Origin: Hanstruepera ponticola
GTDB lineage: Bacteria; Bacteroidota; Bacteroidia; Flavobacteriales; Flavobacteriaceae
NCBI RefSeq assembly: GCF_012931685.1
Contig: NZ_JABANC010000001.1
Coordinates: forward strand, 248,001 to 312,000
Reading direction: 5' to 3'
Length of the DNA stretch: 64,000 nucleotides
Part shown: positions 11,231-43,835 of the stretch, in pieces
Numbering within the stretch: position 1 is the first letter of the stretch
Layout of the letters: every line of letters starts with the position of its first letter
Program-made: the position numbers and the translations under genes
Notes under the pieces: generated by a model
Databases searched by the model: none
What the model was told of the DNA's origin: nothing
What the model saw: only the letters and a program-made list of their open reading frames with translations

Positions 11231-11238
11231 CAAAAGTA
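11231..11238 (-). promoter_or_regulatory. Putative -7 element of the export operon
   Basis: TACTTTTG on the minus strand matches TAnnTTTG and lies in the 79-base gap between the 75-residue peptide gene and the ATPase gene. No convincing -33 TTG. Confidence 0.4.
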
Positions 11239-11246
11239 AATATTAA

Positions 11247-11474: not shown

Positions 11475-11475
11475 T

Positions 11476-12000
11476 TTAGTAGTAGGGTGAAATCATTATA
11501 TAAACCACAACGCCTGAAATAGCTACAAACAACCACAAAGGAAATGTTATTCTAGCAATTTTTTTATGTCGTTCAAAATCATTAGTAATAGCTCTAACAT
11601 AAGTAATTAAAACAAAAGGAATAATTATGATTGACATTAAAATGTGTGTAATTAATATGGCAAAATATAAATACTTCATAGCGCCTTCTCCACCATATTT
11701 TGTTGAATCACTGGTCATGTGATATAAGACATACATCACCAAAAAACATACAGAAAGAATAATAGCAAACTTCATTAAACGTTCATGAAGAAGGCGTTTC
11801 CCATTTGTTATTGCTAAAAACCCTAGCACTAAAACCAAAGCTGTTATAGCGTTTATTGTTGCATAAATTGGCGGTAAAAAAACTGGTAATTCTATATCCA
11901 ACTTAACACCAAACAATGCCGCCACTACCAATGGTATTACTATGGATAAGATTACAATCCATTTATTATATTTTTTTGTATTTATTGTTGTGTTTGCCAT
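11476..12000 (-). CDS. DUF420 family membrane protein (oxidase-associated)
   Basis: A 174-residue protein with about five transmembrane helices. It matches DUF420, a family found next to cytochrome oxidase and SCO genes and including the Staphylococcus oxidase assembly factor CtaM. Conserved His residues sit in membrane segments (LLHERLMKFA, LYHMTSD, ITHILMS and FERHKKIAR), which is compatible with heme or copper handling. Its ATG overlaps the SCO stop codon in a TAATG arrangement, so translation is probably coupled. The role in assembly is known only for distant relatives. Confidence 0.85.
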   Translation of the reverse strand: MANTTINTKKYNKWIVILSIVIPLVVAALFGVKLDIELPVFLPPIYATINAITALVLVLGFLAITNGKRLLHERLMKFAIILSVCFLVMYVLYHMTSDSTKYGGEGAMKYLYFAILITHILMSIIIIPFVLITYVRAITNDFERHKKIARITFPLWLFVAISGVVVYIMISPYY

Positions 12001-12746: not shown

Positions 12747-13446
12747 CAGTATTGTTTAAATCATTGGCTCTTCTAGATGTTGAATCGAAATTTCCTTTTC
12801 TTTTTTGACGGTATTCCGTAAAAAGAACTCTCAAATCTTCAGCACTCATCTTGTTTTTTATGACAGCAACCTCAATACAGTCATAAGAATTCAAGCCATA
12901 AATTTCTTTCTTTTTTGCTTTCTCATTGTCAGATCTATCATCCAATCGTCCTCGTTGGTTTAAGTCGGTATCTATAATATACACATGGTCTGACGATAGG
13001 TTTTTATCTAATTCTTCACTAGATTTTAAACCTTTAAAAGTACTTAATATCTCATACTCATTGGCAGTAACAAAATGCCAAAAGCGTAAATCTTCATAGG
13101 TTGCTATCTCTCTGTACAGTTTTTCAGCCTCTTCTTTGGCGTCTTCAGTAACCAAAACAACTATTTGAAACTTTTTAAAGCCTTTAAATTTGTCATAAAC
13201 CAATTCTTTTAAATTAGAACCAGCAATAACTTTGTCCAAGGGTTTATTACCAAAAAATGCCAATACGGTAATATGATCTTCTAAACCTATATTGTCTTCA
13301 TTTACAGGAAGCTCAACAACCCCTTCTTTAACGATGTCAAGTGTATTATAATTTTCTTTTGAAAGCGATAGAATTAAAACAAACATGACGGGGAGAAAGA
13401 ATAAAATTCCCAAAATCACATTTCGTTTTATTAGCTTTTTTTCCAT
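12739..13446 (-). CDS. Membrane-anchored protein with a probable thioredoxin-like fold, oxidase assembly unit
   Basis: A 235-residue protein with one N-terminal transmembrane helix (about 9-28) after a KKLIKR stretch, then a soluble periplasmic domain. The pattern ITVLAFFGNK, then FQIVVLVTEDAKEEAEKLY, then HVYIIDTDLNQRGRLDDR resembles the strand-helix order of SCO/thioredoxin proteins, but the C-x3-C is absent; the only Cys I see is in NSYDCIEVA. The last 8 bases overlap the SCO gene. It may be a redox-inactive partner of SCO, but I do not recognise a named family and the fold is an inference. The ATG lies only 4 bases from a -7 element, so the transcript may be leaderless. Confidence 0.75.
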   Translation of the reverse strand: MEKKLIKRNVILGILFFLPVMFVLILSLSKENYNTLDIVKEGVVELPVNEDNIGLEDHITVLAFFGNKPLDKVIAGSNLKELVYDKFKGFKKFQIVVLVTEDAKEEAEKLYREIATYEDLRFWHFVTANEYEILSTFKGLKSSEELDKNLSSDHVYIIDTDLNQRGRLDDRSDNEKAKKKEIYGLNSYDCIEVAVIKNKMSAEDLRVLFTEYRQKRKGNFDSTSRRANDLNNTDE

Positions 13447-13450
13447 AGTG

Positions 13451-13458
13451 CAAAAATA
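13451..13458 (-). promoter_or_regulatory. -7 element directly before the oxidase assembly unit
   Basis: TATTTTTG on the minus strand (TAnnTTTG). It overlaps the T-run of the preceding terminator, and the ATG follows after 4 bases. No -33 TTG is evident. Confidence 0.5.
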
Positions 13459-13485
13459 AAAAAAGGCGGTTTAAAAACCGCCTTT
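13455..13485 (-). terminator. Terminator after cytochrome oxidase subunit IV
   Basis: AAAGGCGGTTT (13462-13472) / AAACCGCCTTT (13475-13485) followed on the minus strand by a run of T (13455-13461). It lies 22 bases after the subunit IV stop codon and separates the oxidase subunit operon from the assembly unit. Confidence 0.85.
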
Positions 13486-13507
13486 ATATATTTATATTTC
13501 ATTGTTA

Positions 13508-13888
13508 TTAGAAATCTCTTTTTACAAATCCTGAAGAATAAACACCTTCAATATAACCACCTTCTTGCAATAAGATAAAAATCAAATAACAGATTAAGAA
13601 AACCGCAGTCCATACCACCATACGTCTTAATGCTTTAGTTTCGTCGCGCATGTGCATGAAATCCCAAGTGATGTAGTAAGCTTTAACAATAGTAAGGATT
13701 ATAAATATCCAGTTTAATAATTTCATACCTAAAACTTTGGCCATTAAAGCTTCTGGTTTATAGATACCTAATACAACTTCAACAGCTGTAACAATTGTTA
13801 ATAGAATCAATACTCCCCAAATTTTTTGGGTATTAGACTTAAATTTTATTAACCCTCTTAAAATTTCTAATTTGTGTGCGTGTGCCAT
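13508..13888 (-). CDS. Cytochrome c oxidase subunit IV-like protein
   Basis: A small subunit of the heme-copper oxidase, 126 residues with three transmembrane helices (about 23-42, 53-72, 88-107). It fits the prokaryotic COX4/CyoD type, with a short His-containing N-terminus (MAHAHKLEI) and the conserved ITWDFMHMRDETKALR segment between helices 2 and 3. It lies 19 bases after a subunit III gene on the same strand and closes that operon with a terminator. The large subunits coxA and coxB are not here but in the alternative complex III operon at 45-48 kb. Confidence 0.88.
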   Translation of the reverse strand: MAHAHKLEILRGLIKFKSNTQKIWGVLILLTIVTAVEVVLGIYKPEALMAKVLGMKLLNWIFIILTIVKAYYITWDFMHMRDETKALRRMVVWTAVFLICYLIFILLQEGGYIEGVYSSGFVKRDF

Positions 13889-13909
13889 TTTAATTTTTTT
13901 TATCTGAAA

Positions 13910-14890
13910 TTAAACTAGGTAGAAGAATGTAAATACAAATACCCAAACTAAATCTACAAAGTGCCAATACAGACCAACTTTTTCAACCATTTCGTAACTT
14001 CTACGTTTTTCATACGTGCCTAATATCACATTGAAAAAGATAATAATATTAATTACAACTCCAGAAAATACGTGAAAACCGTGAAACCCAGTAATGAAGA
14101 AAAAGAAATCAGCAAACAATGGAGAACCATACTCGTTAACTTTAAGATTAGCACCTTCAACAACAGCTATACCGTTTTCTTTTACTTGTTTTAGAGATTC
14201 AGCTCTTGAAAGTACAGTTTTCTCACCGTGCTCATTAATCATTTGAGTTCTGACTAATACATTTTCATGAGATTCCAAACCATGCATCACTTCATCCATA
14301 GTATACGTTGGTAAAGTTCCCTCATCAACAAACCACAAACCATTCTTACGTTCGTGAGCCGTTCTATCTCTATGTCCAGCAACCACAAAATCACCTAAAG
14401 CGACACGTTTGCCTTCAGTATCTACAAATTGTAGAATGTTACCACCTTTTGTTTGGATAGCACCATAATCACCTTTAATAAAAGTAGCCCATTCCCAAGC
14501 TTGAGAACCAACGAATATTAAACCACCAATTATAGTTAAGAACATATACCAAGTTACTTTGGTCTTTTGCATTTTATGACCTGCATCTACAGCCAATACC
14601 ATAGTTACCGATGACATAATAAGAACAAAGGTCATAAAAGCCACATATATCATTGGCAATTCCTGACCATGTAAGAAAGGTACGTGAGTAAAAACCTCAT
14701 CGGCTATAGGCCATGATTCGATAAATTTAAATCTTGAAAACCCGTAGGCTGCTAAAAACCCTGAAAACGTCAAGGCATCCGATACGATAAAAAACCACAT
14801 CATCATTTTACCGTAACTTGCTTTTAGAGGCTGATTTCCGCCTCCCCAAGTTTTACCTTCTGTTCCAGTATTTACAACTGTAGTACTCAT
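13910..14890 (-). CDS. Cytochrome c oxidase subunit III with a large soluble insertion
   Basis: A membrane subunit of the aa3-type oxidase. Helices at about 28-50, 78-101 and 112-133 are followed by a hydrophilic stretch of about 120 residues (138-257), then helices at about 260-290 and 305-325. The ends show subunit III features: WFFIVSDALTFSGFLAAY, ITGFHGFHVFSG, and the closing WHFVDLVWVFVFTFFY. At 326 residues it is longer than the usual 190-270 because of the insertion, which I do not recognise as a known domain. It is the second subunit III gene here, 137 bases after the shorter one, with a possible promoter in the gap. Confidence 0.88.
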   Translation of the reverse strand: MSTTVVNTGTEGKTWGGGNQPLKASYGKMMMWFFIVSDALTFSGFLAAYGFSRFKFIESWPIADEVFTHVPFLHGQELPMIYVAFMTFVLIMSSVTMVLAVDAGHKMQKTKVTWYMFLTIIGGLIFVGSQAWEWATFIKGDYGAIQTKGGNILQFVDTEGKRVALGDFVVAGHRDRTAHERKNGLWFVDEGTLPTYTMDEVMHGLESHENVLVRTQMINEHGEKTVLSRAESLKQVKENGIAVVEGANLKVNEYGSPLFADFFFFITGFHGFHVFSGVVINIIIFFNVILGTYEKRRSYEMVEKVGLYWHFVDLVWVFVFTFFYLV

Positions 14891-29189: not shown

Positions 29190-31493
29190 TTAATGTCCTA
29201 TTCCTGCTTTTAATTCAAGCTCTTTTTTTTCTTTTTGTTGTGCATCAATTACGGCAATGGCAGTCATATTTACAATTTCATCTACACTGGCATCCAACTG
29301 TAAAATGTGAATAGGTTTTCGCATACCCATCATTATAGGACCAATGGAATCTGCCTTATTTAATTCTTTGAGCAATTTGTAAGTGATATTGGCTGATTCT
29401 AAATTTGGAAAAATAAGTGTATTTACTTTTTTACCTGCTAATTTTGAAAAAGGAAAAATATCCTGTAACATTTCACTATTCAATGCGAAATCTGTTTGTA
29501 ATTCCCCATCAACCAACAGATTTGGATGTCTTTTATGTAAGTAAGTTACAGCCTCACCAACTTTAGTAGCAGTTTGATTTTTAGACGATCCAAAATTAGA
29601 ATATGATATCATCGCCATAACAGGTTCCATACCAAACATTTTTACCACACCTGCAGTCATCTGAGCTATTTTTGTTAGATCGCTTGCAGTTGGATTAATA
29701 TTTATAGAAGTGTCACTCAAAAACATAGGACCACGTTGTGTCATCATCACATTGGTTGTTGCTACACGCGTTGATCCTGGCGCTAGTCCTATTAATTCTA
29801 ACATGGGTTTTACCACAGATGGATAGCTTCTTGAATAACCAGAAATCATAGCATCTGCATCACCTTCATTAACCATCATAGCTGCGAAATAATTACGTTC
29901 ACGCATAATTTTTTCTGCAGAATATAAGGTCACTCCTTTTCGCTTACGTTGTTCCCAATAAACTTTAGCATATTTATTTTTCCTTACTTCTTCTTCGTCA
30001 GATTTAGGATCTATTATTGGCACATCAGCATCAAATTCAATTTCTTCTTTTAGTTTTTCAATGGCGTCGCGTCTTCCAAGTAGAATTGGAAAAGCAATGC
30101 CTTCGTCATAAGCAATTTGTGCAGCCTTTAAAACATCCAACTGATCAGCTTCTGCAAATACTACGCGTTTAGGATTGGTTTTAGCACGGTTGAGTAGTAA
30201 TCGCACTATTTTATTATCAGAACCTGATCGCTCTAGCAATTCATCCTCATATTTTTGCCAATCCGTTATGGGTTGTTGGGCAACACCACTTTCCATAGCA
30301 GCTTTGGCAACCGCTGGTGGAACTTGTGCAATTAAACGTGGGTCAAAAGGTTTAGGAATGATATAATCTCTACCAAATGTCAGACGTGTTTCGCCATAAG
30401 CAATATTCACTTGTTCAGGCACTGGGTCTTTCGCTAACTCTGCCAGCGCCATTACAGCCGCCATCTTCATTTCCTCATTAATTTTAGTGGCACGAACATC
30501 TAACGCACCTCTAAAAATAAAAGGGAAGCCAAGAACATTATTTACTTGGTTAGGATGATCACTTCTCCCAGTAGCCATAATAATATCATCGCGTGTATCT
30601 ATCGCTAAATCATATGCGATTTCTGGATCAGGATTGGACATGGCGAAGACAATTGGGTTTGCAGCCATGGATTTAAGCATGTCTGGCGAAACAATATTTG
30701 AAGTAGATAAACCAATAAACACATCAGCGTCTTTCATGGCCTCATCTAAAGTGTCAATTTTTCTGTGAGTCGCAAACTCTGCTTTTTCTTTTGTTAGATT
30801 CTCTCTATCCTGTCTTATTACTCCTTTACTATCCAACATTACCATGTTTTCGCGAACAGCACCACACGCTTGATACAATCGTGAACATGATATAGCAGCA
30901 GCTCCGGCACCACTTATTACAATTCTTACATCTTCAATCTTTTTATTTGCCAACTCCAGGGCATTTAGTAACGCTGCAGCAGAAATTATTGCTGTACCAT
31001 GTTGGTCATCATGCATAACAGGAATATCCAACTCTTCTTTTAAACGTCGTTCAATTTCGAATGCTTCAGGAGCTTTGATATCCTCAAGGTTTATGCCTCC
31101 AAATGTTGGTGCGATATTTTTAACCGTAGCTATAAATTCTTCAATGTTTTCAGTGTCAACTTCAATATCAAAAACATCAATATCTGCAAATATTTTAAAC
31201 AGCAATCCCTTACCTTCCATAACAGGTTTAGAAGCTTCTGGACCAATATTACCTAATCCTAAAACTGCTGTTCCATTTGAAATTACTGCTACTAAATTTC
31301 CTTTGGTAGTATATTTATAAACGTTGTTTATATCCTTGGCTATTTCTAAACAAGGTTCAGCTACACCTGGTGAATAAGCTAGCGACAAATCTCGCTGACT
31401 CGCATATTTTTTAGTTGGAACTACTTTTATCTTTCCTGGTGTTGGCTTTGCATGATAAACCAAGGCCTCACGTCTTCTACTTTGCTTGCTCAT
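29190..31493 (-). CDS. maeB: NADP-dependent malic enzyme with C-terminal phosphotransacetylase-like domain
   Basis: Converts malate to pyruvate and CO2 with reduction of NADP. The N-terminal catalytic half (about 1-420) has SLAYSPGVAEPCLEI, the metal/substrate region DIPVMHDDQHGTAI, the nucleotide-binding VISGAGAAAISCSRLY and FAMSNPDPEI. The C-terminal half (about 430-767) is a phosphate acetyl/butyryl transferase domain (GEADAMISGY-like, FLSDTSININPTA), thought to regulate the enzyme by acetyl-CoA in MaeB homologues. The frame is open to a TTG at 31502, but the ATG at 31491-31493 starts the conserved MSKQSRRREALVYH and is chosen. Length (767) is normal for the hybrid type. A -7 element lies at 31516-31523. 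Confidence 0.94.
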   Translation of the reverse strand: MSKQSRRREALVYHAKPTPGKIKVVPTKKYASQRDLSLAYSPGVAEPCLEIAKDINNVYKYTTKGNLVAVISNGTAVLGLGNIGPEASKPVMEGKGLLFKIFADIDVFDIEVDTENIEEFIATVKNIAPTFGGINLEDIKAPEAFEIERRLKEELDIPVMHDDQHGTAIISAAALLNALELANKKIEDVRIVISGAGAAAISCSRLYQACGAVRENMVMLDSKGVIRQDRENLTKEKAEFATHRKIDTLDEAMKDADVFIGLSTSNIVSPDMLKSMAANPIVFAMSNPDPEIAYDLAIDTRDDIIMATGRSDHPNQVNNVLGFPFIFRGALDVRATKINEEMKMAAVMALAELAKDPVPEQVNIAYGETRLTFGRDYIIPKPFDPRLIAQVPPAVAKAAMESGVAQQPITDWQKYEDELLERSGSDNKIVRLLLNRAKTNPKRVVFAEADQLDVLKAAQIAYDEGIAFPILLGRRDAIEKLKEEIEFDADVPIIDPKSDEEEVRKNKYAKVYWEQRKRKGVTLYSAEKIMRERNYFAAMMVNEGDADAMISGYSRSYPSVVKPMLELIGLAPGSTRVATTNVMMTQRGPMFLSDTSININPTASDLTKIAQMTAGVVKMFGMEPVMAMISYSNFGSSKNQTATKVGEAVTYLHKRHPNLLVDGELQTDFALNSEMLQDIFPFSKLAGKKVNTLIFPNLESANITYKLLKELNKADSIGPIMMGMRKPIHILQLDASVDEIVNMTAIAVIDAQQKEKKELELKAGIGH

Positions 31494-31515
31494 AAAATTC
31501 AAAGTTTATAAGCCA

Positions 31516-31523: not shown

Positions 31524-31613
31524 GTATATTTAACGGTGATAGGATAAAATATAGAGGTTCAAAATTGAATTTTTGAAACCAGAATTTAATATAATTATTT
31601 TTTAAATTTTAAA

Positions 31614-32510
31614 CTATTCTGTTTTGGAACTTATAAATTTTTTTACGGATTCATTTGTAATAGATGGATTTGCTCCTTCACTTTGCGCTACCATTGCTCC
31701 AAGGGCACAGGCATGATCAATTGCTTTTTGAGGGGATTCATTCTTTTTGAGAGAATTAATTAGAGTTGCAAGGAATGAATCTCCTGAACCAACAGTATCA
31801 ACCACGTTTACTTTATAGCCATTATTATAATAGAAGTTATCATTATAATATAGCACTGCTCCCTTTTCTCCAAGTGTCACACATATACTTGGTGTTTGAG
31901 TATGATTTGATAACCTTTTGATACTTTCTTCCATAGAAGTTGAATCTAAACCCAAATAACCAATGATTTCGGCAAGCTCTTCATCATTTAATTTAATAAA
32001 ATCTGCCTTACTCATTAATTCATTCAGTAAATCTTGAGTATAATGTGGTGATCTTAAGTTAATATCAAAAACTTTAAAATTAGCATGTTCCAGAAGCCTT
32101 GTCAAAGTTAATCTAGACATATTACTACGTGCCGCTAGGCTTCCAAAAATAAATATATCTGAATTCGCAACTAAATCTTTACAATCTTTGTTATACTCAA
32201 TGTAATCCCAAGCACTTGGGAACATAATTTCATAAGATGCGGAACCGGTTTCACCTAAACTAACTTTAACAATTCCTGTCCTCCAATCTGAAGCCAATTG
32301 TACATTAGAAAAATCTAGTTCATTTTCTTTGAAAATTTTTAGGAGATTTGCACCTAAAGTATCCTTGCCTACTTTACTTATCATAGACACGTCATTCCCA
32401 AACGATTTTAACCTAATTGCAACATTAAGAGGTGCTCCTCCAACCTTTTTATATGTTGAAAACACATCCCAAAGCACTTCGCCAAAACAGACTACTTTTA
32501 ATTTTTTCAT
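31614..32510 (-). CDS. PfkB family sugar kinase, probable fructokinase
   Basis: Likely phosphorylates fructose released by the neighbouring beta-fructosidase. PfkB/ribokinase hallmarks are present: VCFGEVLWDVF and GGAPLNVAIRLKSFG at the N-terminus, and the catalytic anion-hole signature DTVGSGDSFLATLI near residue 245-258 with the catalytic Asp. The GEVLWDVF form is typical of fructokinase/carbohydrate kinases of Bacteroidetes. The frame extends to an ATG at 32537, but the ATG at 32508-32510 (MKKLKVV) starts 1 base after the upstream stop codon and avoids overlap, so I use it (298 residues). It is the last gene of the sucrose operon. Substrate specificity is inferred from context. Confidence 0.88.
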   Translation of the reverse strand: MKKLKVVCFGEVLWDVFSTYKKVGGAPLNVAIRLKSFGNDVSMISKVGKDTLGANLLKIFKENELDFSNVQLASDWRTGIVKVSLGETGSASYEIMFPSAWDYIEYNKDCKDLVANSDIFIFGSLAARSNMSRLTLTRLLEHANFKVFDINLRSPHYTQDLLNELMSKADFIKLNDEELAEIIGYLGLDSTSMEESIKRLSNHTQTPSICVTLGEKGAVLYYNDNFYYNNGYKVNVVDTVGSGDSFLATLINSLKKNESPQKAIDHACALGAMVAQSEGANPSITNESVKKFISSKTE

Positions 32511-32511
32511 A

Positions 32512-33606
32512 TTAATCAGTCTTTTTAGAAAACTCAACCCTAAAGGGGTCTAAATATATATAGAAAGTCTCTGGAAATGTCAATCTTAAATCTGGTTCTG
32601 CATTTTCAGTATATGGAGCAATACATAATAATCGGTTATTTTTAAAATCCTCTTTTAATACAGTCAAACCAAATAAATTCTCATTTTTTAGAATTTTAGA
32701 ACCCAAAGAAACCCACGGACCCTCAACATTTTGAGATTTATATGCCCTAACTTCTTTTGATACTTCATTGGCAGGTTGACTTTCAAACAATCGGTTGCAG
32801 CTCGAAATTATGAGATAATACAAATCTTTATTTTTATCATATAAAATTTTAGGAACTTCCAATTGTGTAAAATCATCAGCATCTGGAACCAAAATTGGGG
32901 GATGTAATTTTTTTATTTTAAAGACATCATCATTTTCTGCTAGTATTGCTCTAGCTAAAGCTCCTCTTCTCGGATTTGTTTTTGCTCCCCAAAATAGATT
33001 TAACTCACCTTTTTTATCTGAAAATGTAAACGGATCCCTCCATGACATAATAGGCCCATTCTCTTCTCCCAAATCACTCCCCAAATTATCTATTCTATCT
33101 AAATAATATCCTTTATCAACAATTTCATCCCAATCTTTTGATGGAGAAGAAATGGTTTTTATAGTATTTTTTTGTACAGAATGACCATCATTTGATATCG
33201 CTAATGCAATGCTTTGATGATAATTTCTAATAGAATCAATATTTTCAATACCAGTAAAAGTCACAAGTTTTCTTCCATCTGAAAGCGGCATTACACTTCC
33301 GCTCCAAATAGTTTTAAAATTGAGTTTACTTACTTCATCTGTACTTAAAAAACAACCTTCATCCTTCCAAGAGTTGCCATTGTCTTTGGATGAAAAATGT
33401 CTAATATGAAACGGGTTATTGTTCCGTTCATATGGGTCTAACTCTGAACCATCAGATAAAAAACGTGGCACAGCTAAACAATACAAATGAAGAGTTTCAT
33501 TCTCACAATAAGACCATGCATCCCATAAGTATAAATAAGGATGTTTAATTCCATTTATAAACAACGTTCCGTAGGCTTTTGGAATTCTATTCATTGAGAC
33601 TATCAT
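32512..33606 (-). CDS. GH68-type beta-fructosidase without signal peptide
   Basis: A clan GH-J glycosidase of 364 residues that probably splits sucrose or short fructosides. Motifs fit GH68 better than GH32: WDAW with nucleophile Asp29, WSGSV (101-105, as in levansucrase EWSGSA), WRDPF with transition-state Asp191, and the acid/base Glu250 in QLEVPKI. It is much shorter than secreted levansucrases (about 470 residues) and has no signal peptide, so it should work in the cytoplasm on imported sugar. It sits between the transporter gene (21 bases) and the fructokinase gene (1 base), a coherent uptake-and-cleavage path. Hydrolysis rather than fructan synthesis is an inference. A second ATG at 33594 is possible. 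Confidence 0.85.
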   Translation of the reverse strand: MIVSMNRIPKAYGTLFINGIKHPYLYLWDAWSYCENETLHLYCLAVPRFLSDGSELDPYERNNNPFHIRHFSSKDNGNSWKDEGCFLSTDEVSKLNFKTIWSGSVMPLSDGRKLVTFTGIENIDSIRNYHQSIALAISNDGHSVQKNTIKTISSPSKDWDEIVDKGYYLDRIDNLGSDLGEENGPIMSWRDPFTFSDKKGELNLFWGAKTNPRRGALARAILAENDDVFKIKKLHPPILVPDADDFTQLEVPKILYDKNKDLYYLIISSCNRLFESQPANEVSKEVRAYKSQNVEGPWVSLGSKILKNENLFGLTVLKEDFKNNRLLCIAPYTENAEPDLRLTFPETFYIYLDPFRVEFSKKTD

Positions 33607-33627
33607 TTTAATAAAATGAATATTAAA

Positions 33628-35091
33628 TTATTTCTGATTATCAAATTCTAAACTATCATTAGGCTTTCCTTTTAAACGAAGAGCCAATAAACCGGCTATA
33701 ACAAATAAAAACCCTGCACATAAAATTGCATTAATGGCATCGTTCCCGAGTACATTCTTTACTATTGGTCCAAATGTTAAAGTTTGAATACCCATTGGAA
33801 TGACAATCATCATGTTGACTATCCCCATGTAAACCCCCCTTCGTTTTTCAGGAATAACTTTTGACACCATAGCATATGGAATACCCATCATAGCTGCCCA
33901 TCCAATACCTAATAAAATCATTGGTACTAATAAAGCATATTGGTTACTTATATAAGGCATGCTAATCATTGCTATACCAGTCAAAAATAAGCTCCCAACA
34001 TAAACGAGCTTATTGCTAAATCTTAAAGCAATTGGAACCAGTATTAATGCAACTATCATGGTGACAAAATTATAGGTGCCATTCATTAATCCAGTTTGAG
34101 CTAACGCTTGTTCCGATAACAACTGTATGTTTTGAGCAAACTTTGTATCTGCAATGCTAATCTCCGATCCAGTTTTGCAAGCTTCAATTATAGAATCAAA
34201 TCTTTTTGTATCCTCATTGCTAATTCCAAACATACTTGATCTTAACATTGGTGTGATAAATTGCCAATAAATAAATAATGCATACCATTGAAATAAGTAA
34301 ATACCTGCTAATTTCTTCATTAGTTTAGGCATCTCTCCTATAGCCTGGTATATTTCAACAAATGGCTCAATTAATCGATGCAAAAAGGAAGCATTTTTAT
34401 TACGTGCTTTAATATAATTTAACTCTTCCTCTGATGGTGGTATCTCTGGTGTTTTTAAAACCGACCATAAAATAGTTCCTATAGAGGCTATTGCTCCTAA
34501 AAAAAATGAATAATACACCCATTTGGGAATAGCTGTAATTATTTCTGTCTCATTACTGCAAAGTGAAGCACCTTCAATTGCTGGAACACTAAACCAGTCC
34601 TGAAATAAAAACAAAGAAAAATTTGCTAGTGTTATACCTGCACCAACAAATAAACTTTGCATTTGAAAACCATATGTTAACTGTTCATCTGGTAATTTAT
34701 CTCCTACAAATGCCCTGTAAGGTTCCATGGCAGTATTATTGGCTGCATCCAAGACCCAAAGCAATCCAACTGCAAACCATAGTTCAGAACTAAAAGGGAA
34801 CATAAACAAGCATAAACTAGCAACTATAGCTCCGATAAGAAAAAATGGTTTTCTTCTTCCAAAACGTGGTGACCATGTTTTATCAGATATAGCACCAATA
34901 ATTGGTTGTATTAATAAACCTGTAACTGGACCTGCTAAATTAAGCAAAGGCAATTCTTCGTGATGCGCACCTAAAAAGGAAAAAATTGGATTTACAGCTG
35001 TTTGCTGTAAACCAAAACTGAATTGAATGCCAAAAAAACCAACATTCATATTCCATATTTGCCAAAAACTTAATTTAGGTTTCGTAATCAT
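33628..35091 (-). CDS. MFS sugar transporter, SLC45/plant SUT-like, probable sucrose importer
   Basis: A 487-residue inner-membrane carrier with about twelve helices. The loop after helix 2 holds SDKTWSPRFGRRKPFFLIG, the RxGRRxPF signature shared by plant sucrose transporters and animal SLC45 proteins, and an NTAMEPYRAFVGD segment follows. Helix 1 has the NMNVGFFGIQFSFGLQQT pattern of this group. The position between a TonB receptor and a GH68 enzyme supports proton-coupled sucrose or fructoside import. Its ATG overlaps the stop of the glutaredoxin gene (ATGA), so the two are translationally coupled. Maltose transport by relatives means the substrate remains an inference. Confidence 0.87.
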   Translation of the reverse strand: MITKPKLSFWQIWNMNVGFFGIQFSFGLQQTAVNPIFSFLGAHHEELPLLNLAGPVTGLLIQPIIGAISDKTWSPRFGRRKPFFLIGAIVASLCLFMFPFSSELWFAVGLLWVLDAANNTAMEPYRAFVGDKLPDEQLTYGFQMQSLFVGAGITLANFSLFLFQDWFSVPAIEGASLCSNETEIITAIPKWVYYSFFLGAIASIGTILWSVLKTPEIPPSEEELNYIKARNKNASFLHRLIEPFVEIYQAIGEMPKLMKKLAGIYLFQWYALFIYWQFITPMLRSSMFGISNEDTKRFDSIIEACKTGSEISIADTKFAQNIQLLSEQALAQTGLMNGTYNFVTMIVALILVPIALRFSNKLVYVGSLFLTGIAMISMPYISNQYALLVPMILLGIGWAAMMGIPYAMVSKVIPEKRRGVYMGIVNMMIVIPMGIQTLTFGPIVKNVLGNDAINAILCAGFLFVIAGLLALRLKGKPNDSLEFDNQK

Positions 35092-35456
35092 GACTTTTCC
35101 AATAATTTATTTAGAAACTCTTCAAACTTTTCATTATTTATAAATATACTACCTACTTTATCAACTACTGGAAGAGTCAAATTGGAAAGTGAAATATTAG
35201 CGGCTTTTAATTTGGCAATCATTTCCTTTTGTTTAGCAAGATTTAGATCAATATCATAATATTGAAATTCAATATTATTCTTTTTTAAAAATATTTTTGT
35301 TTCTAAACAATAATGGCAGGTATCACTTCCATAAATTATAAGTTTTTCAGAAACTACCAGATTATTTATATCATCTGTTTTAATTCCTTGGCTAAATGCT
35401 GAAAAATTATTCAATAGAGCAAGAATTACAGTAATAAAAAACACATTTTTTTTCAT
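35088..35456 (-). CDS. Exported glutaredoxin-like protein
   Basis: With the ATG at 35454-35456 the product has 122 residues: a signal peptide (MKKNVFFITVILALL, ending SAFSQ) and a glutaredoxin/thioredoxin domain. The redox motif is C-x2-C in SDTCHYCLETKIFL, the cis-proline region is NLTLPVVD, and the closing element is VGSIFINNEKFEEFLNKL. A longer frame open to 35552 would hide the signal peptide behind 32 non-conserved residues, so I reject that start. It lies between the receptor and the transporter genes and overlaps the latter by 4 bases. Why a periplasmic glutaredoxin is bound into a sugar operon is unclear. It might repair disulfides of the receptor or a partner protein. Confidence 0.8.
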   Translation of the reverse strand: MKKNVFFITVILALLNNFSAFSQGIKTDDINNLVVSEKLIIYGSDTCHYCLETKIFLKKNNIEFQYYDIDLNLAKQKEMIAKLKAANISLSNLTLPVVDKVGSIFINNEKFEEFLNKLLEKS

Positions 35457-35578
35457 GAAACTAAATTTAATAAGAAAAGAGCCGGTATTTAATGTGTTAA
35501 CACCAACTCCTTTCACACACTTAAAAAAGGTTATATCAATTTTAAAAACCAACCCATTTTAAATCCTAAAGACTAATT

Positions 35579-38197
35579 CTAAAATCTATATTGTAGTGCT
35601 AATGACATTGATCTACCGGGCAATGGTCTTGCTCTAACATAATTATCCTGACCTTCAGTAATACTACCTTCTTCAACTTCGGTAACACCAATTGAATCAA
35701 AAATATTGTTAGCTGATAGGTTAACAAATAAATCTTTCGTAATTCCTACGTTTACAAATCCATTTACTATCATAAAACCAGGCATTACCAATTCATTTGT
35801 ATCTTGTGCATATGCCTTTGTTTGTCCAATAAAACTTAATCCTACAGCATTCTGTTTAGTTGTACCAAAATTATAAGATGGTATGATATTGTAAATTAAG
35901 TCTGGTTGTCTTCTTGGCGTATTTCCCTTATTGTCCCCAGAGTTTACTTCAGCATCAGTATACGTTATTGCACCTCTTAAATTAAAATTATTAAATCTAT
36001 AATATCCTTCTAGTTCAACACCAATAGATTTATAATCATTCTCAATAATGCTATTTGAAGTAGCTTCAAAACCTCCTTCTTCTCTAGTTTTGGCATAGAA
36101 TGCAGTTGCATAGATTGCACCGTTTGCAAAACCTCGCTTATATCCTAATTCTGCTTGATCTATAAAATCTAATGCATTAATTCTATCTCCATCAAGATAA
36201 TCTAAACCTGAAAACAAAATTCTATCTGCCTTTGCTGATGCACCACTTGAGTATCTACCAAAAACAGATTGGTTATCCTGTATCTTGAAATTTAATCCTA
36301 ACGAGTAAGAAACATAATCATAGTCATAATCAACAGCGGTTGGGTTAGCAGTATCAACAGCCGAAACATCTTGTTCTGGCACAGAAATAAAACCGTCGTT
36401 ATTAATATCGAACTCCGTTTGAACTGTACCAGCAAATGAACCATCAACACGTCCTTTATCATATCTCACACTACCATCAATTGTAAATTTTTCACTAGCT
36501 TCTATTGTTACGTTTGCATATGGTGCAGAAACATTATATTGAGTGTCATAATTTCTTGTACAACAGTTACCCCAAAATGGTACTCCGTAAGCATATAATC
36601 CATTATCACTTAAAGGATTACTAGCTGAATCAAATACATTAATCAATCTAGCATTGTCATCATTTACCTCTTGTAGGTAAGAATTCCATAACCATGACAT
36701 AGAAATATCTTGAATTGCCTTAAAATATCCTAATGTAACATCAACATTACCAAACGATTTAGACAATTTAAAATCATTCATAAAATTGTTAAAATTATTC
36801 AGTTCAACATCAAACATGTGAATTCTAGCCACTAAACTATTATCTGCCACTGATGTTCCATCAGTAAACGATAAAGTTGACCCTGTCCCAAAAGATTCAG
36901 CAATAGTTGATGCCGAAGCAACTTCTGCAGGAAATGGTGAAACAAATGCTCCTTTATTTGATGAATACCTTCCATTATTTCTAACTTTCCAGTTATTTCC
37001 TAAATCAAATGAAGCTTCAAAGCCAACCGAAGTAGAGATTGGATTCATTCCATCGGCAACATTTGATCGTCTCAATTGACCATCACCGCCTAAACCTACA
37101 TTTTGCGTTAAATTAGATGTATGTAAAGATCCAGTTGTTGCATCAAAATTTGGAGCATCTCCCCAATCTGGATCACTATTAGTACCTGTCACCTTCATTG
37201 GCATTGGTAAATAAGCAACAGCTTTATCATTCAAATACTTACCATATACTCTAACATAACCATTCTTGAAATCTTTAGTGAAGTTCAGCTTAAATTGACC
37301 TCCATTATTAGCTGTAAAACCTGTTTCACGTACACCTTCACCAACTCTGTAAAATCCTCCCATATGGAAATACAAATCTTCTCCTATCCTTGATCCATAA
37401 TCAAAATCTGTTCTGAAAGAATTATAATCTAAACCAAAGCTAGTTGCAATTGATCCTCCTTCTACTCTACCTGTTTTACTAATAATATTTATTATTCCTC
37501 CAGGTGCGTTGGATGATAATGTTGAAGCAGATCCACCTCTAATTGCTTCAATACGTGCAACATTAGCATCAAATCTTGTAAAGATATCTGACGTCGCAAA
37601 CGCTATATCTCCATATAATAAAACGGGGAGACCATCTTCTTGCAATTGAACATATTTAGATCCCCCTGAAGAAATGGGCACACCACGAACCGCTATATTA
37701 GCATTACCTTCACCACCTGATGATTCTGATCGAATACCAGGTAATGTTCTAAAAATTTCTGCAGTTGTTCTCGGAGCAGATTCAACAATTGTTTTAGGCT
37801 TCATTGTTGTTATTGAAACACTTGATTCAATTTTTGACCTAGGATTTACAACTCCAGTTATAATAACCTCATCTAATGATTCAGTATCCTCATTCATCAC
37901 AATATCTAGTGTGACATCACTACCAGTGACCTCAACATTACTATCTACACTAGCGTAGCCTAAAAAACTAGCTTGTATAATGTATGTACCATCTTCCACA
38001 TTTTCAATGACAAAATTACCGTCTATGTCTGAAACTGCACCTTGCGTCGTTCCAGAGATAATTACATTTACACCAGGAAGCGTCTCTCCATTAGTATCGC
38101 TTACTGTTCCTGAAATATTAACTTGCCCCATTACAAATGATGTAGTTAATACCAAGATTCCTAAAAATAACTTTTTGAGCTTTGTTAGTTTTTTCAT
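35579..38197 (-). CDS. TonB-dependent receptor, probable sucrose/fructoside uptake
   Basis: An 872-residue outer-membrane receptor. A signal peptide (1-24, ending VMGQ) is followed by a carboxypeptidase-like regulatory domain (about 25-110, VNISGTVSDTNGETLPGVNV), the plug (about 115-235, with VRGVPISSGGSKYVQ and IRGGSASTLSSNAPGGIINI) and a 22-strand barrel ending in MSLALQYRF. There is no SusD-like gene beside it, so it is a stand-alone receptor like SuxA of Xanthomonas rather than a SusCD pair. It is the first gene of the operon; 122 bases separate it from the glutaredoxin gene. Transcription is probably controlled by the LacI-type regulator through the operators at 38285-38317. Confidence 0.9.
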   Translation of the reverse strand: MKKLTKLKKLFLGILVLTTSFVMGQVNISGTVSDTNGETLPGVNVIISGTTQGAVSDIDGNFVIENVEDGTYIIQASFLGYASVDSNVEVTGSDVTLDIVMNEDTESLDEVIITGVVNPRSKIESSVSITTMKPKTIVESAPRTTAEIFRTLPGIRSESSGGEGNANIAVRGVPISSGGSKYVQLQEDGLPVLLYGDIAFATSDIFTRFDANVARIEAIRGGSASTLSSNAPGGIINIISKTGRVEGGSIATSFGLDYNSFRTDFDYGSRIGEDLYFHMGGFYRVGEGVRETGFTANNGGQFKLNFTKDFKNGYVRVYGKYLNDKAVAYLPMPMKVTGTNSDPDWGDAPNFDATTGSLHTSNLTQNVGLGGDGQLRRSNVADGMNPISTSVGFEASFDLGNNWKVRNNGRYSSNKGAFVSPFPAEVASASTIAESFGTGSTLSFTDGTSVADNSLVARIHMFDVELNNFNNFMNDFKLSKSFGNVDVTLGYFKAIQDISMSWLWNSYLQEVNDDNARLINVFDSASNPLSDNGLYAYGVPFWGNCCTRNYDTQYNVSAPYANVTIEASEKFTIDGSVRYDKGRVDGSFAGTVQTEFDINNDGFISVPEQDVSAVDTANPTAVDYDYDYVSYSLGLNFKIQDNQSVFGRYSSGASAKADRILFSGLDYLDGDRINALDFIDQAELGYKRGFANGAIYATAFYAKTREEGGFEATSNSIIENDYKSIGVELEGYYRFNNFNLRGAITYTDAEVNSGDNKGNTPRRQPDLIYNIIPSYNFGTTKQNAVGLSFIGQTKAYAQDTNELVMPGFMIVNGFVNVGITKDLFVNLSANNIFDSIGVTEVEEGSITEGQDNYVRARPLPGRSMSLALQYRF

Positions 38198-38355: not shown

Positions 38356-39381
38356 ATGAAGCCAGCTACCTTAAAAGAAATAGCTACAACTCTGGGTTTA
38401 TCTATTTCAACTGTTTCAAAAGCTCTTAAAGATTATCCTGATGTCAGTAAAAAAACTAAAAAACTAGTAAAAGAGTTAGCTGAAACTTTAAATTATCGAC
38501 CTAATGCTTCTGCAGTCAATTTAAGGACAAAAGAATCCAAAACAATTGGACTTGTTATACCTGAAGTTGTTCATCATTTTTTTTCAAGTGTTATAAAGGG
38601 AATAATTAGTGAAGCAGAAGACAAAGGGTATCTGGTTATTATATTACAATCAAATGAATCATTTGAATTAGAAAAAAAACAAATTGAGTTATTGATTAAC
38701 AAGCAAGTTGATGGAATCTTGATATCATTAGCTAATGGAACATATGATTTCTCACATTTAAAGGCTGTTATGAATCAAGGTATCACCTTAGTAATGTTTG
38801 ACAAAATCGCTAAAATTGTAGACTGTTCAAAAGTAATTATTGATGATCAAATGGCTGCTTTTGATGCGACTCAACACCTCATTGATACTGGATGCAAAAG
38901 AATTGCTCATTTTAGAGGGCCCTTAACACCTCAAAATTCCATCGATAGATTTTTAGGTTATAAAAAAGCTTTACTACACAATCAAATTCCCTATGACCCA
39001 TCGTTAGTTTATATATTGGATGCCATGAGTTTTGAAGAAGGCCAACATTTTACTAAAGAGCTATTAAAGGATCATGATGATATTGATGGAATATTTATAA
39101 ATACTGATTTGGTTGCCATTGGATCAATCACTGAATTAAATAAAAGAAACATAAAAATACCTGAACAAATTTCAATAATTGGATTTAGCAATTGGTTTAT
39201 GTCTTCTGTGATCTCTCCAACGCTTTCAACAGTCAATCAGCCTGGTCACTTAATGGGGAAAAAATCTTTCAAGTTACTTTACAAAGAAATAAAGAAAAGA
39301 AAAGAAGGCAAGAAAATTAAATTCAAAAATGTTGAATTAAAAACTGATATTATCTTAAGGGATTCAACAAAAAAAATATAA
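38356..39381 (+). CDS. LacI/GalR family transcriptional regulator of the sucrose locus
   Basis: A 341-residue repressor or dual regulator. The N-terminal helix-turn-helix (TLKEIATTLGLSISTVSKALKD, residues 4-25) and hinge helix region (TLNYRPNASAVNLRT) are followed by a periplasmic-binding-protein-like sensor domain (TIGLVIPEVVHHFFSSVIKG to the end) with the usual IDGIFINTDLVAIGS and ISIIGFSNW motifs. It is transcribed away from the receptor operon. The divergent layout with two palindromic operators suggests it controls both directions. The inducer is likely sucrose, fructose or a phosphorylated product, which sequence alone cannot decide. It ends 311 bases before the next gene with no clear terminator. 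Confidence 0.92.
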   Translation: MKPATLKEIATTLGLSISTVSKALKDYPDVSKKTKKLVKELAETLNYRPNASAVNLRTKESKTIGLVIPEVVHHFFSSVIKGIISEAEDKGYLVIILQSNESFELEKKQIELLINKQVDGILISLANGTYDFSHLKAVMNQGITLVMFDKIAKIVDCSKVIIDDQMAAFDATQHLIDTGCKRIAHFRGPLTPQNSIDRFLGYKKALLHNQIPYDPSLVYILDAMSFEEGQHFTKELLKDHDDIDGIFINTDLVAIGSITELNKRNIKIPEQISIIGFSNWFMSSVISPTLSTVNQPGHLMGKKSFKLLYKEIKKRKEGKKIKFKNVELKTDIILRDSTKKI

Positions 39382-39423
39382 TCTATTTTTATAAAACCTC
39401 AATTTTACGATGCGACACAGATA

Positions 39424-39547
39424 GTTTAGTTGTATCTAAACGCTTCTCAAAATTAATTCTCATGTATTGCATGTCTCTATTCCGATTATTATTCAACCAT
39501 TTTTATAATCGTGCTGCTTCATATTTTAAAAATTCTACTTTGCTTGC
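39424..39547 (-). pseudogene. Relic of a queG 5' segment
   Basis: This stretch aligns without gaps to 42297-42420 inside the intact queG gene. By my count 101 of 124 bases are identical. In the queG frame the relic reads EFLKYEAARL, stop, KWLNNNRNRDMQYM against [25 protein letters not shown] in the real protein, so the frame is still recognisable but broken by an in-frame TAA. The similarity fades on both sides. It lies on the same strand as queG, 2.7 kb away, across the POTRA/beta-barrel gene. It could be left from a duplication or from recombination with a diverged incoming queG. Confidence 0.85.
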
Positions 39548-39634
39548 TCATAAAAATATTATAATGAAAGCAAAGGCAATAAATAACTAACTTTACTAAA
39601 TGGCCAAAATACTATGACTTGTAATAATAATAGT

Positions 39635-39642
39635 TAAATTTG
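39635..39642 (+). promoter_or_regulatory. Putative -7 element for the POTRA/beta-barrel gene
   Basis: TAAATTTG matches TAnnTTTG, 50 bases before the ATG at 39693. The only nearby TTG (39619-39621) is just 13 bases upstream, too close for the usual spacing. Confidence 0.4.
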
Positions 39643-39692
39643 GTTTTAACAATTAGTTACTTCATTCATATCAAATTACTCACAAGTAATCT

Positions 39693-41561
39693 ATGAGTTT
39701 TATTAGAATTTTTTATGTGGTGGTGTTTTTTATAAGTGGGACACTCATCCATGCTCAAAACAAACCTGAAGAGAAAGATTCTACGAACATCTATAATAAA
39801 ATTGAGGAGTTTTCGGAAAAAGGAAAGGTTACTAAAACGCTACATGGCTTTTTGTTCAGGTCTCAAAAAGAAAATGACAAACCTGTTACAGACCTGCCTA
39901 AACGTCCTAACCAAAAAAAATATAATAATAAGATTATCCGAAATATAAATATCATTACGTTTGACCCGTTTGGTAAAAAACTTTCTGACACAACACAAAC
40001 AGTAGATAACTGGTTAGAACGTACTGGTAATTTCTTACATGTTAAAACAAAGGACTGGACAATTAAAAACTTGCTTTTATTTAAAGAAAATCAAGTATTG
40101 GACTCACTACTCTTGACTGAATCCGAGCGTTTAATCAGAACAAATAATTATGTCCGTGAAGCTTTGATTACTCCTGAATTGGTTTCTAATGATTCAGTAG
40201 ATGTCACCGTAATGGTTTTAGATTCTTGGAGTTTAATACCAAATGCTTCAATTTCCACCTCAAAAAACACCTTGAAATTAAAAGAAAGAAATTTGCTGGG
40301 GTTTGGTCATAATTATAAAATAAATTACACAACTCGGTTTGAAGATGGTGAAAAGGCCTACGACATAGCCTATAATATTCCAAATTTTAAAAACACCTAT
40401 ATTAACACATCAATAAATTATTATCAAGATCTAGATAAAAATTATAGAAAGAGTATAGACATAAACAGACCTTTTTATTCACCATTAACCAAATGGGCTG
40501 GTGGTGTAACTTTTAGCGAACAATATTCCCAAATTTTCCTGCCAAATTCTATGGATAGTTTGTCCATACAAGATTTAAAATTCTATTCACAAGATGTTTG
40601 GTTAGGATATTCCTATAAAATATTTAAAGGATCTAGTGTAAAAGAACGTACAACCAATCTAGTAACTTCTTTAAGATATATTAATACAGACTACAAAGAA
40701 AGGCCAGATATAGCCTATGATAGTATACGCTATTTTTCAAGTGAATCTTTTCCCATTGCTAGTATAGGTCTATCATCTAGACAATATATTCAAGATGAAT
40801 ATCTTCTAAACTATGGTATTATTGAAGATGTGCCAGTAGGAACCATATATTCCCTTACGGGTGGATATGAATATAAAAACAAGAGATATAGAACTTATTT
40901 AGGTGCCCGAGTTTCAATGGGTAATTATACCAAATTGGGATATTTAAGTTTTAATTTAGAATATGGCACATACATAAGAGGAAAAACCAGAGAACAAACC
41001 ACTTATGTTTTAGAAGGCTATTATTTTTCAGATTTGGTCTCTTTGGGAGATAAATGGAAATTAAGGCAGTTTATTAAACCTCAAATCATTATTGGCAGTA
41101 AGCGCTTGGGAACTGTGGCTGATAGAATTTCTTTAAATGAAAACAAATCTTTTCAAGGTTTGTATGCTAGTGCGTATGAACGTAATAATGCTAGTGGTTT
41201 ACCAGATTTTGATTCCTCATTATACGGGACTGAAAAATTTGTTATATCGCTACAAACTCAAGTTTACTCTCCATGGAACCTACTTGGATTTCGGTTGAAC
41301 CCTTATATCAATATTACTTCTGGACTTATTGGTGACGAAAACAATCGTTTTTATGAAAATAAACTTTACAATGCCTTCAGTCTTGGTTTTTTAATTAGAA
41401 ACGATTATTTAGTATTTAATTCCTTTCAAATATCCTTTACATATTATCCAAGTATTCCAAATGAAGGCAGTAACATTTTTAAGACTAATACTTTGGAAAC
41501 AGATGATTTAGGGTTTCCTAATTTTGAATTGGGGAAACCGCGTCCTGTGCTATTTAATTAA
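39693..41561 (+). CDS. Outer-membrane beta-barrel protein with a POTRA-like N-terminal region
   Basis: A 622-residue exported protein with a signal peptide (1-21, ending IHAQ). Residues about 80-175 look like a POTRA-type module: NIITFDPFGKKLSDT, KENQVLDSLLLTESERLIRTNNYVREA, then DSVDVTVMVLDSWSL. This is the strand-helix-helix-strand rhythm seen in BamA/Omp85 relatives. The rest is a beta-barrel rich in Tyr, with LKLKERNLLGFGHNYKINY typical of the first strands after a POTRA domain. I would call it an Omp85-superfamily member, but no named function can be assigned. It faces queG with only one base between the two stop codons. No usable terminator was seen. Confidence 0.72.
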   Translation: MSFIRIFYVVVFFISGTLIHAQNKPEEKDSTNIYNKIEEFSEKGKVTKTLHGFLFRSQKENDKPVTDLPKRPNQKKYNNKIIRNINIITFDPFGKKLSDTTQTVDNWLERTGNFLHVKTKDWTIKNLLLFKENQVLDSLLLTESERLIRTNNYVREALITPELVSNDSVDVTVMVLDSWSLIPNASISTSKNTLKLKERNLLGFGHNYKINYTTRFEDGEKAYDIAYNIPNFKNTYINTSINYYQDLDKNYRKSIDINRPFYSPLTKWAGGVTFSEQYSQIFLPNSMDSLSIQDLKFYSQDVWLGYSYKIFKGSSVKERTTNLVTSLRYINTDYKERPDIAYDSIRYFSSESFPIASIGLSSRQYIQDEYLLNYGIIEDVPVGTIYSLTGGYEYKNKRYRTYLGARVSMGNYTKLGYLSFNLEYGTYIRGKTREQTTYVLEGYYFSDLVSLGDKWKLRQFIKPQIIIGSKRLGTVADRISLNENKSFQGLYASAYERNNASGLPDFDSSLYGTEKFVISLQTQVYSPWNLLGFRLNPYINITSGLIGDENNRFYENKLYNAFSLGFLIRNDYLVFNSFQISFTYYPSIPNEGSNIFKTNTLETDDLGFPNFELGKPRPVLFN

Positions 41562-41562: not shown

Positions 41563-42495
41563 TCAAATATTGTTTTTAATAAAATTGATGTTTCGTTTCA
41601 ATCCAGAATATTTGGTACGTTTAACTGGTGATTTTTTAAAGACTTTTTTAAAGGTATCCTCTGTAATTTCATCCCAATCTTTTTTGGTCATATCTAAAAG
41701 TTCTGGGTGCGGATTGAATAATGGTTCGCTATGTGATTTTGAAAAGCGGTTCCAAGGACATACATCTTGACACACATCACAACCAAACATCCAATTATCC
41801 ATGTGACCTTTAAAGGCTGTTGGAATATTATCTTTTAATTCAATGGTTAAGTAAGAAATACATTTACTCCCATCTACCACATAGGGTTGTATAATGGCTT
41901 CTGTTGGACAAGCATCAATGCAAGCAGTACAAGTACCACAATGGTCAGTTACAGGCATATCATATTCTAGCTCTAAATCAACAATCAATTCCGCAATAAA
42001 ATAAAAAGACCCTACTTGTTGGGTTAACAAATTACTGTGTTTACCAATCCAACCTAATCCAGATTTTGCTGCCCAAGCTTTGTCTAAAACTGGCGCAGAG
42101 TCTACAAATGCTCTTCCATGAACTTCACCTATTTCGTTTTGAACAAATTGCAACAGTGACTTTAATTTGTCCTTGATGACAAAATGATAATCTGTTCCAT
42201 AAGCGTATTTGGACAACTTATAACTGTTTTCATTTTGTATTTCAGAAGGAAAGTAATTAAGTAATAGAGAAATCACACTTTTTGAACCTTCTACAAGTTT
42301 TGTTGGATCAAGGCGTTTATCAAAATGATTTTCCATGTATTGCATCTCACCATGCCTATTATTATTCAACCATTTTTCTAATCGTGGTGCTTCATCTTCT
42401 AAAAATTCTGCTTTGCTTATGCCACAGGACAAAAAACCGAGACGCTTGGCTTCCGTTTTAATTATATGACTATATGTAGATTTACTTTGATTCAA
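41563..42495 (-). CDS. queG: Epoxyqueuosine reductase QueG
   Basis: Performs the last step of queuosine synthesis on tRNA, reducing epoxyqueuosine with a cobalamin cofactor and two [4Fe-4S] clusters. The N-terminal cobalamin-binding domain holds [25 protein letters not shown]. Two cluster motifs follow: [12 protein letters not shown] plus the partner Cys in SKCISYL, and [11 protein letters not shown]. Its 310 residues equal the short form without the HEAT-repeat tail. The start is TTG (42493-42495), overlapping the P450 stop in TTGA; no ATG occurs before Met54. It ends the ruvB-P450-queG operon. A diverged relic of its 5' part lies at 39424-39547. Confidence 0.95.
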
Positions 42496-43835
42496 CTTTT
42501 TAAAATTTCAAATTTTACAAAAGCATTTTTAGGTTTTAGGGTAATCAACGGATTAATTTCAATATTATCTTTTACAGGTTTAATTGAAAATTTTAACAAT
42601 ATCTCTGAAATGGTCAAAATCATTTCAAACATGGCAAAATTATTACCAATACATTTTCGTGGACCTGAACCAAAAGGAAAATACTGTGACGAATAATTTT
42701 TAGCGTTTTCAGGTGCGAAACGTTCTGGAACGAAACTATCTGGAAATTCCCACAAAGCTTTATGCCTGTGAATTTCATAGATGGAAAACAATAAATTATT
42801 TCCTTTATCAAAATGATATCCATTACATGAATCACTTTCAATATTGACCCTGTCTATAAAATAGGCAGGTGGATACAATCGTAAGGACTCTTCAACTACT
42901 TGCTTTGCTAATTGTGATTGTATGATAGCAGCCATGATATCATTATTGTTGTTTTTTAAAATTGACTGATATTGACTAAGTATATTCTCCTGCCATTCAG
43001 TATGTTGAGCCAATAATTGTATTGTAAAACTCAATGCATTAGCTGTTGTTTCATGTCCTGCAACAAATAGCACCAAAATCTCATCTATTAATTGGTTCAT
43101 GCTCATTTCGGTACCATCTTCATACCGTGCTTCAAGGAGCATATCCAATAAATCATCAAATCTTGTTTGAGATTCTTTTCTTCTGATTATGATGTTTTTT
43201 AGAATATCCCTAGATTCATTTGAACGCTTTAGATGTCTATCAATAATACCAAAGGATTCAAAATACCATTTTAAATATGGTTGCCGAAGCTCTTTTACCA
43301 ACATAAGTTGATTTTCTTCGGTTACATGTTGTAGGGTTTTGATTTCGGAATCTGATGCTGCATTACTAAACAAAGCTCTAACAACCACTTTAAATGCTAA
43401 ATCACTGAAAAGTGGTAGAACATCCGTTTTGACATCAGTTTTAATTTCAACCAAAGATTCAACAATGGTTTGCTTAACAGTTGCCATCAGGCTTTCTAAA
43501 TTAGATTTATGAAAGGCTGGTTGAATTAGTTTGCGTTGCTTACGCCAATAAGTCCCTTCAGAAGTTAGCAAACCATTACCTAAATATTTGGCAAGGTCTT
43601 CGGTTTGAATAGCTGACTTTTTATAGTTCTTCCAGTTTTTTTGTAAAACATATTCAGCTAAGACTGCATCTCTGGAAAAGATAGCATGTTTACCAAAACC
43701 TACATTTAGCTTAAAAATATCACCATAGCGCTCAAAGTTTTTGTGATGAAAAGGTAATGGATTGTTTAATATTTTAATGGCTTGCCTTAAAAAGGTAAAA
43801 GTTGAAACTTCTGGTATCTTTTTAATAGGTGTCAT
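42492..43835 (-). CDS. Cytochrome P450
   Basis: A heme-thiolate monooxygenase of 447 residues, soluble. The I-helix oxygen-activation motif is [10 protein letters not shown], the K-helix ExxR is EESLRLYPP, and the heme-binding loop is [14 protein letters not shown] with the axial Cys395. The sequence style ([17 protein letters not shown], then [13 protein letters not shown]) is that of CYP102/CYP4-like fatty-acid-type enzymes, but the substrate cannot be read from sequence. It overlaps ruvB by one base (TAATG) and queG by four, so it is translated from a transcript with DNA repair and tRNA modification genes. No ferredoxin or reductase partner is nearby. Confidence 0.93.

What the first reader, a model, noticed from the sequence alone, without database searches (positions are those of the whole stretch)
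39424..39547. Decayed second copy of queG beside the sucrose locus
The bases 39424-39547 align without gaps to 42297-42420 within the intact queG (I count 101 of 124 identical). The relic keeps the reading frame but holds an in-frame TAA. It lies exactly between the LacI-type regulator of the sucrose locus and the POTRA/beta-barrel gene. One reading is that the sucrose block arrived with flanking DNA from a donor whose queG was diverged, and the fragment marks the join. An old local duplication is the alternative.
Basis: partly seen in the sequence, partly recalled or inferred. Interest (0 to 1): 0.6.

Follow-up and report, generated by a model that had tools for sequence, protein, structure and literature searches.

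The report
Fossil junction of two gene-slot versions
The broken second copy of the gene queG is real, and it marks where two versions of the same stretch of a marine bacterium's chromosome were spliced together at a short chance match; it is a well-preserved trace of an ordinary process of genome change, not a sign of DNA from another genus.

Summary
Confirmed and enlarged. Bases 39424-39547 match the local queG at 101/124 (E 5e-30). The relic is longer and composite. On the minus strand it runs: a decayed maeB promoter, maeB codons 1-6 (23-bp exact repeat of 31475-31497), queG codons ~30-67, an in-frame loss of 229 codons, then queG's last 13 codons with the stop one base from the LacI stop, exactly as LacI abuts intact queG in a sister species.

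The queG-maeB interval is a variable slot across Flavobacteriaceae: empty, sugar locus (LacI against queG), outer-membrane gene, or both. The window carries a queG-POTRA-maeB version and a queG-LacI-sucrose-maeB version end to end, joined at AAGCAAAG[T/C]AGAA, shared by maeB codons 3-7 and queG codons 26-30. Two other genera show displaced queG 3' remnants beside one inserted gene.

Best reading: one illegitimate (microhomology) recombination joined two alleles of the slot; the orphaned queG then decayed. Tandem duplication with differential loss is the main rival. A donor from another genus is not supported: by identity the relic is nearest its own queG. Tree placement within the genus, hence which side is the newcomer, is unresolved. 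Separately, the sucrose block shows horizontal exchange within the genus.

The parts
39424..39547 (-).
39422..39536 (-). Relic queG, codons ~30-67, with in-frame TAA at codon 40 (39503-39505)
   Evidence: alignment; codon-position pattern
39383..39421 (-). Relic queG, last 13 codons with stop TAG (SVSHRKIEVL*K*); follows codon 67 in frame, codons 68-296 (687 bp) missing; stop is 1 nt from the LacI stop, as in sister species G003
39533..39555 (-). Copy of the maeB start (4 bases upstream plus ATGAGCAAGCAAAGTAGAA), exact 23-bp repeat of 31475-31497
39533..39545 (-). Joint: AAGCAAAGTAGAA, 12/13 identical to queG codons 26-30 (42406-42418, AAGCAAAGCAGAA); maeB of G001/G002 has the same bases as queG here
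39552..39592 (-). Probable decayed maeB promoter (CCTTTG...TTATAA); 57 bp of promoter plus start match G004 at 77%, E 1e-4
31475..31497 (-). Intact maeB start and 4 upstream bases, the other copy of the 23-bp repeat
29190..31493 (-). maeB (malic enzyme), flank of the slot
31614..38197 (-). Sucrose block: PfkB-family kinase, GH32-like enzyme, MFS transporter, glutaredoxin-like protein, TonB-dependent receptor
38356..39381 (+). LacI-type regulator; its orthologues abut the queG stop across the family
39693..41561 (+). POTRA/beta-barrel-like gene (no Pfam match); homologues sit between queG and maeB in Gelidibacter salicanalis, G101, G017 and others
41563..42495 (-). Intact queG
42492..43835 (-). 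Cytochrome P450 between ruvB and queG

Best explanation
The relic is the scar of one illegitimate recombination between two versions of the chromosome slot between queG and maeB. One version was ruvB-P450-queG-POTRA-maeB; the other was queG-LacI-sucrose genes-maeB. The crossover fell in a 13-base near-identity (AAGCAAAG[T/C]AGAA) shared by maeB codons 3-7 and queG codons 26-30, so the maeB start of the first version was fused to the inside of queG of the second. The other end was presumably resolved by normal homologous recombination in shared core genes (homology-facilitated illegitimate recombination). The result keeps one whole queG and one whole maeB, gains both cargoes, and leaves a headless second queG that decayed by point mutation and a 687-bp in-frame deletion. 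Shown: the composite anatomy, both parental arrangements in relatives, the shared LacI/queG joint, and two parallel cases in other genera. Inferred: a single event, the recombination route, and that the queG-POTRA side was the newcomer (weakly preferred; the mirror case is open).
For: Composite structure maeB promoter + maeB 1-6 :: queG 30-67 + queG 3' end abutting LacI. Both parental arrangements exist separately: queG-LacI-sucrose in G003 with the same 1-nt LacI/queG spacing, and queG-POTRA-maeB in Gelidibacter salicanalis L115, G101 and G017. The slot is empty in G001/G002 and holds a DUF5686 gene in G004. Parallel cases: Winogradskyella sp. L083 (queG, peptidase gene, queG 3' remnant codons 260-308, outer-membrane gene, maeB) and G092/L167 (queG, ATPase gene, queG 3' remnant codons 259-306, LacI, maeB). 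Published analogues: displaced 3' remnants and a homology-facilitated illegitimate recombination model at Vibrio T6SS loci (PMC5361080); hotspots without mobile elements exchanged through flanking core genes (PMC5635113).
Against: The relic is closest by identity to the genome's own queG and its maeB part matches the local maeB exactly, which a tandem duplication also predicts. ML placement is unresolved: the 5' part alone prefers G000 by 0.9 lnL, and adding 36 bases of the 3' end prefers G004 by 0.6. About 2.7 13-mers with at most one mismatch are expected by chance between queG and maeB, so the microhomology is where the joint lies but does not prove the mechanism. No donor strain is identified, and the single-event claim is parsimony.
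Confidence: 0.58

Rival explanations
1. Tandem duplication with differential loss inside one lineage: an ancestor with queG-LacI-sucrose-POTRA-maeB duplicated the segment from queG codon ~30 to maeB codon ~6 at the same microhomology; copy 1 lost LacI-sucrose, copy 2 lost POTRA and most of queG.
For: Relic nearest its own queG by identity and exact local maeB start; G129 has exactly the order queG-LacI-...-POTRA-maeB and G003 has the DUF5686 gene in the POTRA place; explains why POTRA sits on the queG side here.
Against: Needs three large losses that leave neighbouring genes whole; no POTRA remnant found in the kinase-maeB gap; does not account for the parallel remnants in L083 and G092, where only an unrelated gene lies between queG and its remnant; relic 3' end resembles G001-G004 more than the present G000 queG end.
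Confidence: 0.25
2. The sucrose block was the newcomer and brought the 3' part of a donor queG (mirror image of the best explanation, close to the first reader's idea but with a donor inside the genus).
For: Sucrose block G000 vs G003 is less diverged (84-97% DNA; third positions 69-95%) than core genes (80-86%; 56-62%); G001, G002, G004 lack it.
Against: Relic queG is not G003-like (80/111 vs 91/111 for G000; G003 private states never shared); LacI abutting queG is the widespread arrangement, so the LacI side looks resident.
Confidence: 0.12
3. The fragment came from a diverged queG of another genus.
For: None specific; the slot does exchange genes across genera.
Against: Best match among ~108 family queGs is the own queG by 32 bits; most relic differences from it occur in no other queG, as expected of decay.
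Confidence: 0.04
4. Chance similarity or assembly artefact.
For: None.
Against: E 4.6e-30; divergence of 18% with stops excludes a misassembled copy.
Confidence: 0.01

Closest known systems
Displaced effector 3' ends and orphan immunity genes at Vibrio cholerae T6SS clusters (PMC5361080); orphaned Rhs 3' regions cited there
   Same: An incoming segment anchored in a conserved gene displaces the old 3' part of that gene, which stays beside its old neighbour; homology-facilitated illegitimate recombination is proposed.
   Different: Here the anchor is the tRNA-modification gene queG, the remnant is a dead pseudogene, the joint is a maeB::queG fusion, and no toxin-immunity selection is involved.
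[quoted passage not shown]
   Same: A slot between conserved core genes (ruvB-queG and maeB-ruvA) with different gene content in each relative; no integrase among the genes seen in the slot.
   Different: Exchange in those hotspots normally replaces content; here two contents were added together and left a scar.
Tandem duplication-random loss rearrangements, known mainly from mitochondrial genomes
   Same: Would give the same gene order and the same junction fossil.
   Different: No second copies of the cargo genes remain; not established here.

Membership tests
Homology-facilitated illegitimate recombination product | One joint with only microhomology between otherwise unrelated sequences | tested here: met
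   maeB/queG joint with 12/13 identity
Homology-facilitated illegitimate recombination product | Other joint resolved by long homology in a shared gene | tested here: inconclusive
   maeB, queG and ruvB show no clear identity switch
Homology-facilitated illegitimate recombination product | Incoming DNA differs in ancestry from the recipient | tested here: inconclusive
   Relic placement unresolved within the genus; intact queG groups with the genus
Integrase-free recombination hotspot between core genes | Same flanking core genes, variable content across relatives | tested here: met
Integrase-free recombination hotspot between core genes | No integrase or transposase in the slot | tested here: inconclusive
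   No such gene in the slot of G000 (Pfam); G003, G004, L083 and L167 judged only by reading their ORFs
Tandem duplication-random loss | Both copies of the duplicated segment traceable | tested here: inconclusive
   queG and maeB starts are doubled; cargo genes are not; no POTRA remnant in 31544-31613
queG (epoxyqueuosine reductase) pseudogene | Homology to queG with disabled frame | tested here: met

The most novel reading that the evidence does not exclude
queG acts as a recurrent landing anchor in Flavobacteriaceae: incoming segments recombine in queG and join illegitimately downstream, so cargo genes stack up beside it and displaced queG 3' remnants record each addition, without any integrase. 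Three genera (G000, L083, G092) show such remnants.
Probability: 0.35. Interest if true: 0.5.

Novelty: new member of a known kind. Interest (0 to 1): 0.36.

Why it matters
It is a readable trace of how a bacterium can add a gene block next to a housekeeping gene without a mobile element, keeping the old block. If queG remnants recur as suggested, they give ordered markers of gene gain in a slot that carries sugar-use loci in many marine Flavobacteriaceae.

Tried and rejected
Foreign displacement of the intact queG from another genus: rejected, it groups with the genus in DNA trees (support 0.986) with the same topology as maeB. A simple target-site duplication flanking the sucrose block (suggested by the 23-bp repeat): rejected, because the left copy is fused to queG sequence and the block abuts queG in G003. 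Relic placement by ML (one search was faulty because four sequences were truncated; one search is the corrected run, with those four left out): unresolved. POTRA remnant in the kinase-maeB gap: none. Identity switch within intact queG: none seen (that class-specific comparison was thin because a motif filter missed several POTRA loci). maeB 5' stub in the L083 or G092 inserts: no convincing match. Second queG fragment in G280 discounted, it lies at a contig end. No terminator-like site in 39300-39760, so no role for the relic is proposed. Literature: no paper held mentions epoxyqueuosine reductase, Flavobacteria and pseudogenes together.

Full report
39424-39547 aligns without gaps to 42297-42420 with 101 of 124 identities. 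In the whole genome the relic matches only itself and queG (E 4.6e-30). It keeps the frame, with TAA at codon 40. Against queG its differences fall on codon positions 1, 2, 3 as 11, 2, 7, while functional queG pairs over the same stretch differ mostly at position 3. It is a dead copy.

The relic is larger and composite. With longer flanks, a 23-bp exact match appears between 39533-39555 and 31475-31497, the start of maeB. On the minus strand the order is: probable decayed maeB promoter (57 bp of promoter plus start match the sister species G004 at 77%, E 1e-4), ATGAGCAAGCAAAGTAGAA (maeB codons 1-6), queG codons ~30-67, then 39 bases whose translation SVSHRKIEVL*K* matches the queG C-terminus SGLHRNIEFLRD* (G004, 28/39 bases). 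No other of 79,922 39-mers tested reaches that score against any of 108 queG ends. Codons 68-296 are missing in frame. The relic stop lies one base from the LacI stop, the same spacing as LacI/queG in G003.

Neighbourhood in relatives. Four other genomes of the genus are held. G001 and G002: queG next to maeB, nothing between. G003: queG-LacI-sucrose block-DUF5686 gene-maeB, no relic. G004: P450-queG-DUF5686 gene-maeB. In named Flavobacteriaceae the same slot is empty, or holds a LacI-led sugar locus abutting queG, or an outer-membrane gene, or both in the order queG-LacI...-outer-membrane gene-maeB. A POTRA homologue of the window's gene lies between queG and maeB in Gelidibacter salicanalis (L115), G101 and G017, with P450 before queG in all three; in G129 it lies on the maeB side of a LacI sugar locus. 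Among the arrangements seen, the window alone has queG-POTRA-[relic]-LacI-sucrose-maeB: two slot versions end to end.

The joint. maeB codons 3-7 and queG codons 26-30 share AAGCAAAG[T/C]AGAA. The relic has the maeB base at the one differing position, so the switch most simply lies in the last four bases. By chance about 2.7 such 13-mers are expected between queG and maeB, so the microhomology only locates the crossover.

Parallel cases. A fragment scan of the held loci and of genomes with two queG matches found two more clear displaced remnants, both 3' parts beside the usual neighbour of queG: Winogradskyella sp. L083 (peptidase gene inserted; remnant codons 260-308 beside the DUF5686-type gene) and G092/L167 (ATPase gene inserted; remnant codons 259-306 beside LacI). 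These favour insertion beside queG over duplication as the general process. Similar displaced 3' ends are described at Vibrio T6SS loci with the same proposed mechanism (PMC5361080), and core-gene-flanked hotspots without mobile elements are known (PMC5635113).

Origin of the relic. By identity it is nearest its own queG (128 bits, next 96). It shares all five sites where G000 differs from the other four genus members and none of the G003 or G004 private states, though two of the five lie in the maeB-like part. Likelihood placement is unresolved. The intact queG is vertical within the genus. So a donor from another genus is unlikely, but whether the two queGs parted by duplication or by divergence between strains is open.

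The sucrose block. Between G000 and G003 it is 84-97% identical with third-position identity 69-95%, against 80-86% and 56-62% for maeB, ruvB, queG, coxA and ruvA. The receptor-glutaredoxin part is the most similar. The block has been exchanged within the genus, independently of the relic question.

Verdict: a real, well-preserved recombination fossil of a known kind, with a suggestion, not yet established, that queG is a recurrent anchor for gene gain.

Noticed in passing
window 42492-43835; L046 11056-12390: P450 genes in the same place between ruvB and queG in G000 and G004 are only 45% identical while ruvB and maeB proteins are about 97% identical (queG 84%), so the P450 has been replaced or differentially kept.
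   Followed up: partly
window 35088-38197 vs L040 9457-12566: Receptor and glutaredoxin-like genes of the sucrose block are 96-97% identical in DNA between species whose core genes are about 83% identical, a recent exchange inside the block.
   Followed up: partly
L144 (G129) 3637-14034: Related LacI locus in the same slot carries a 578-aa protein that looks like a GH13 sucrose phosphorylase (judged by eye) in place of the GH32-like enzyme, followed by a POTRA homologue before maeB.
   Followed up: no
L083 6430-6576 and L167 1755-1898: Displaced queG 3' remnants in two other genera, each downstream of one inserted gene.
   Followed up: partly
   Followed up: partly
G273 C7:79013-79920: queG split into two overlapping matches, possible frameshift.
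   Followed up: no
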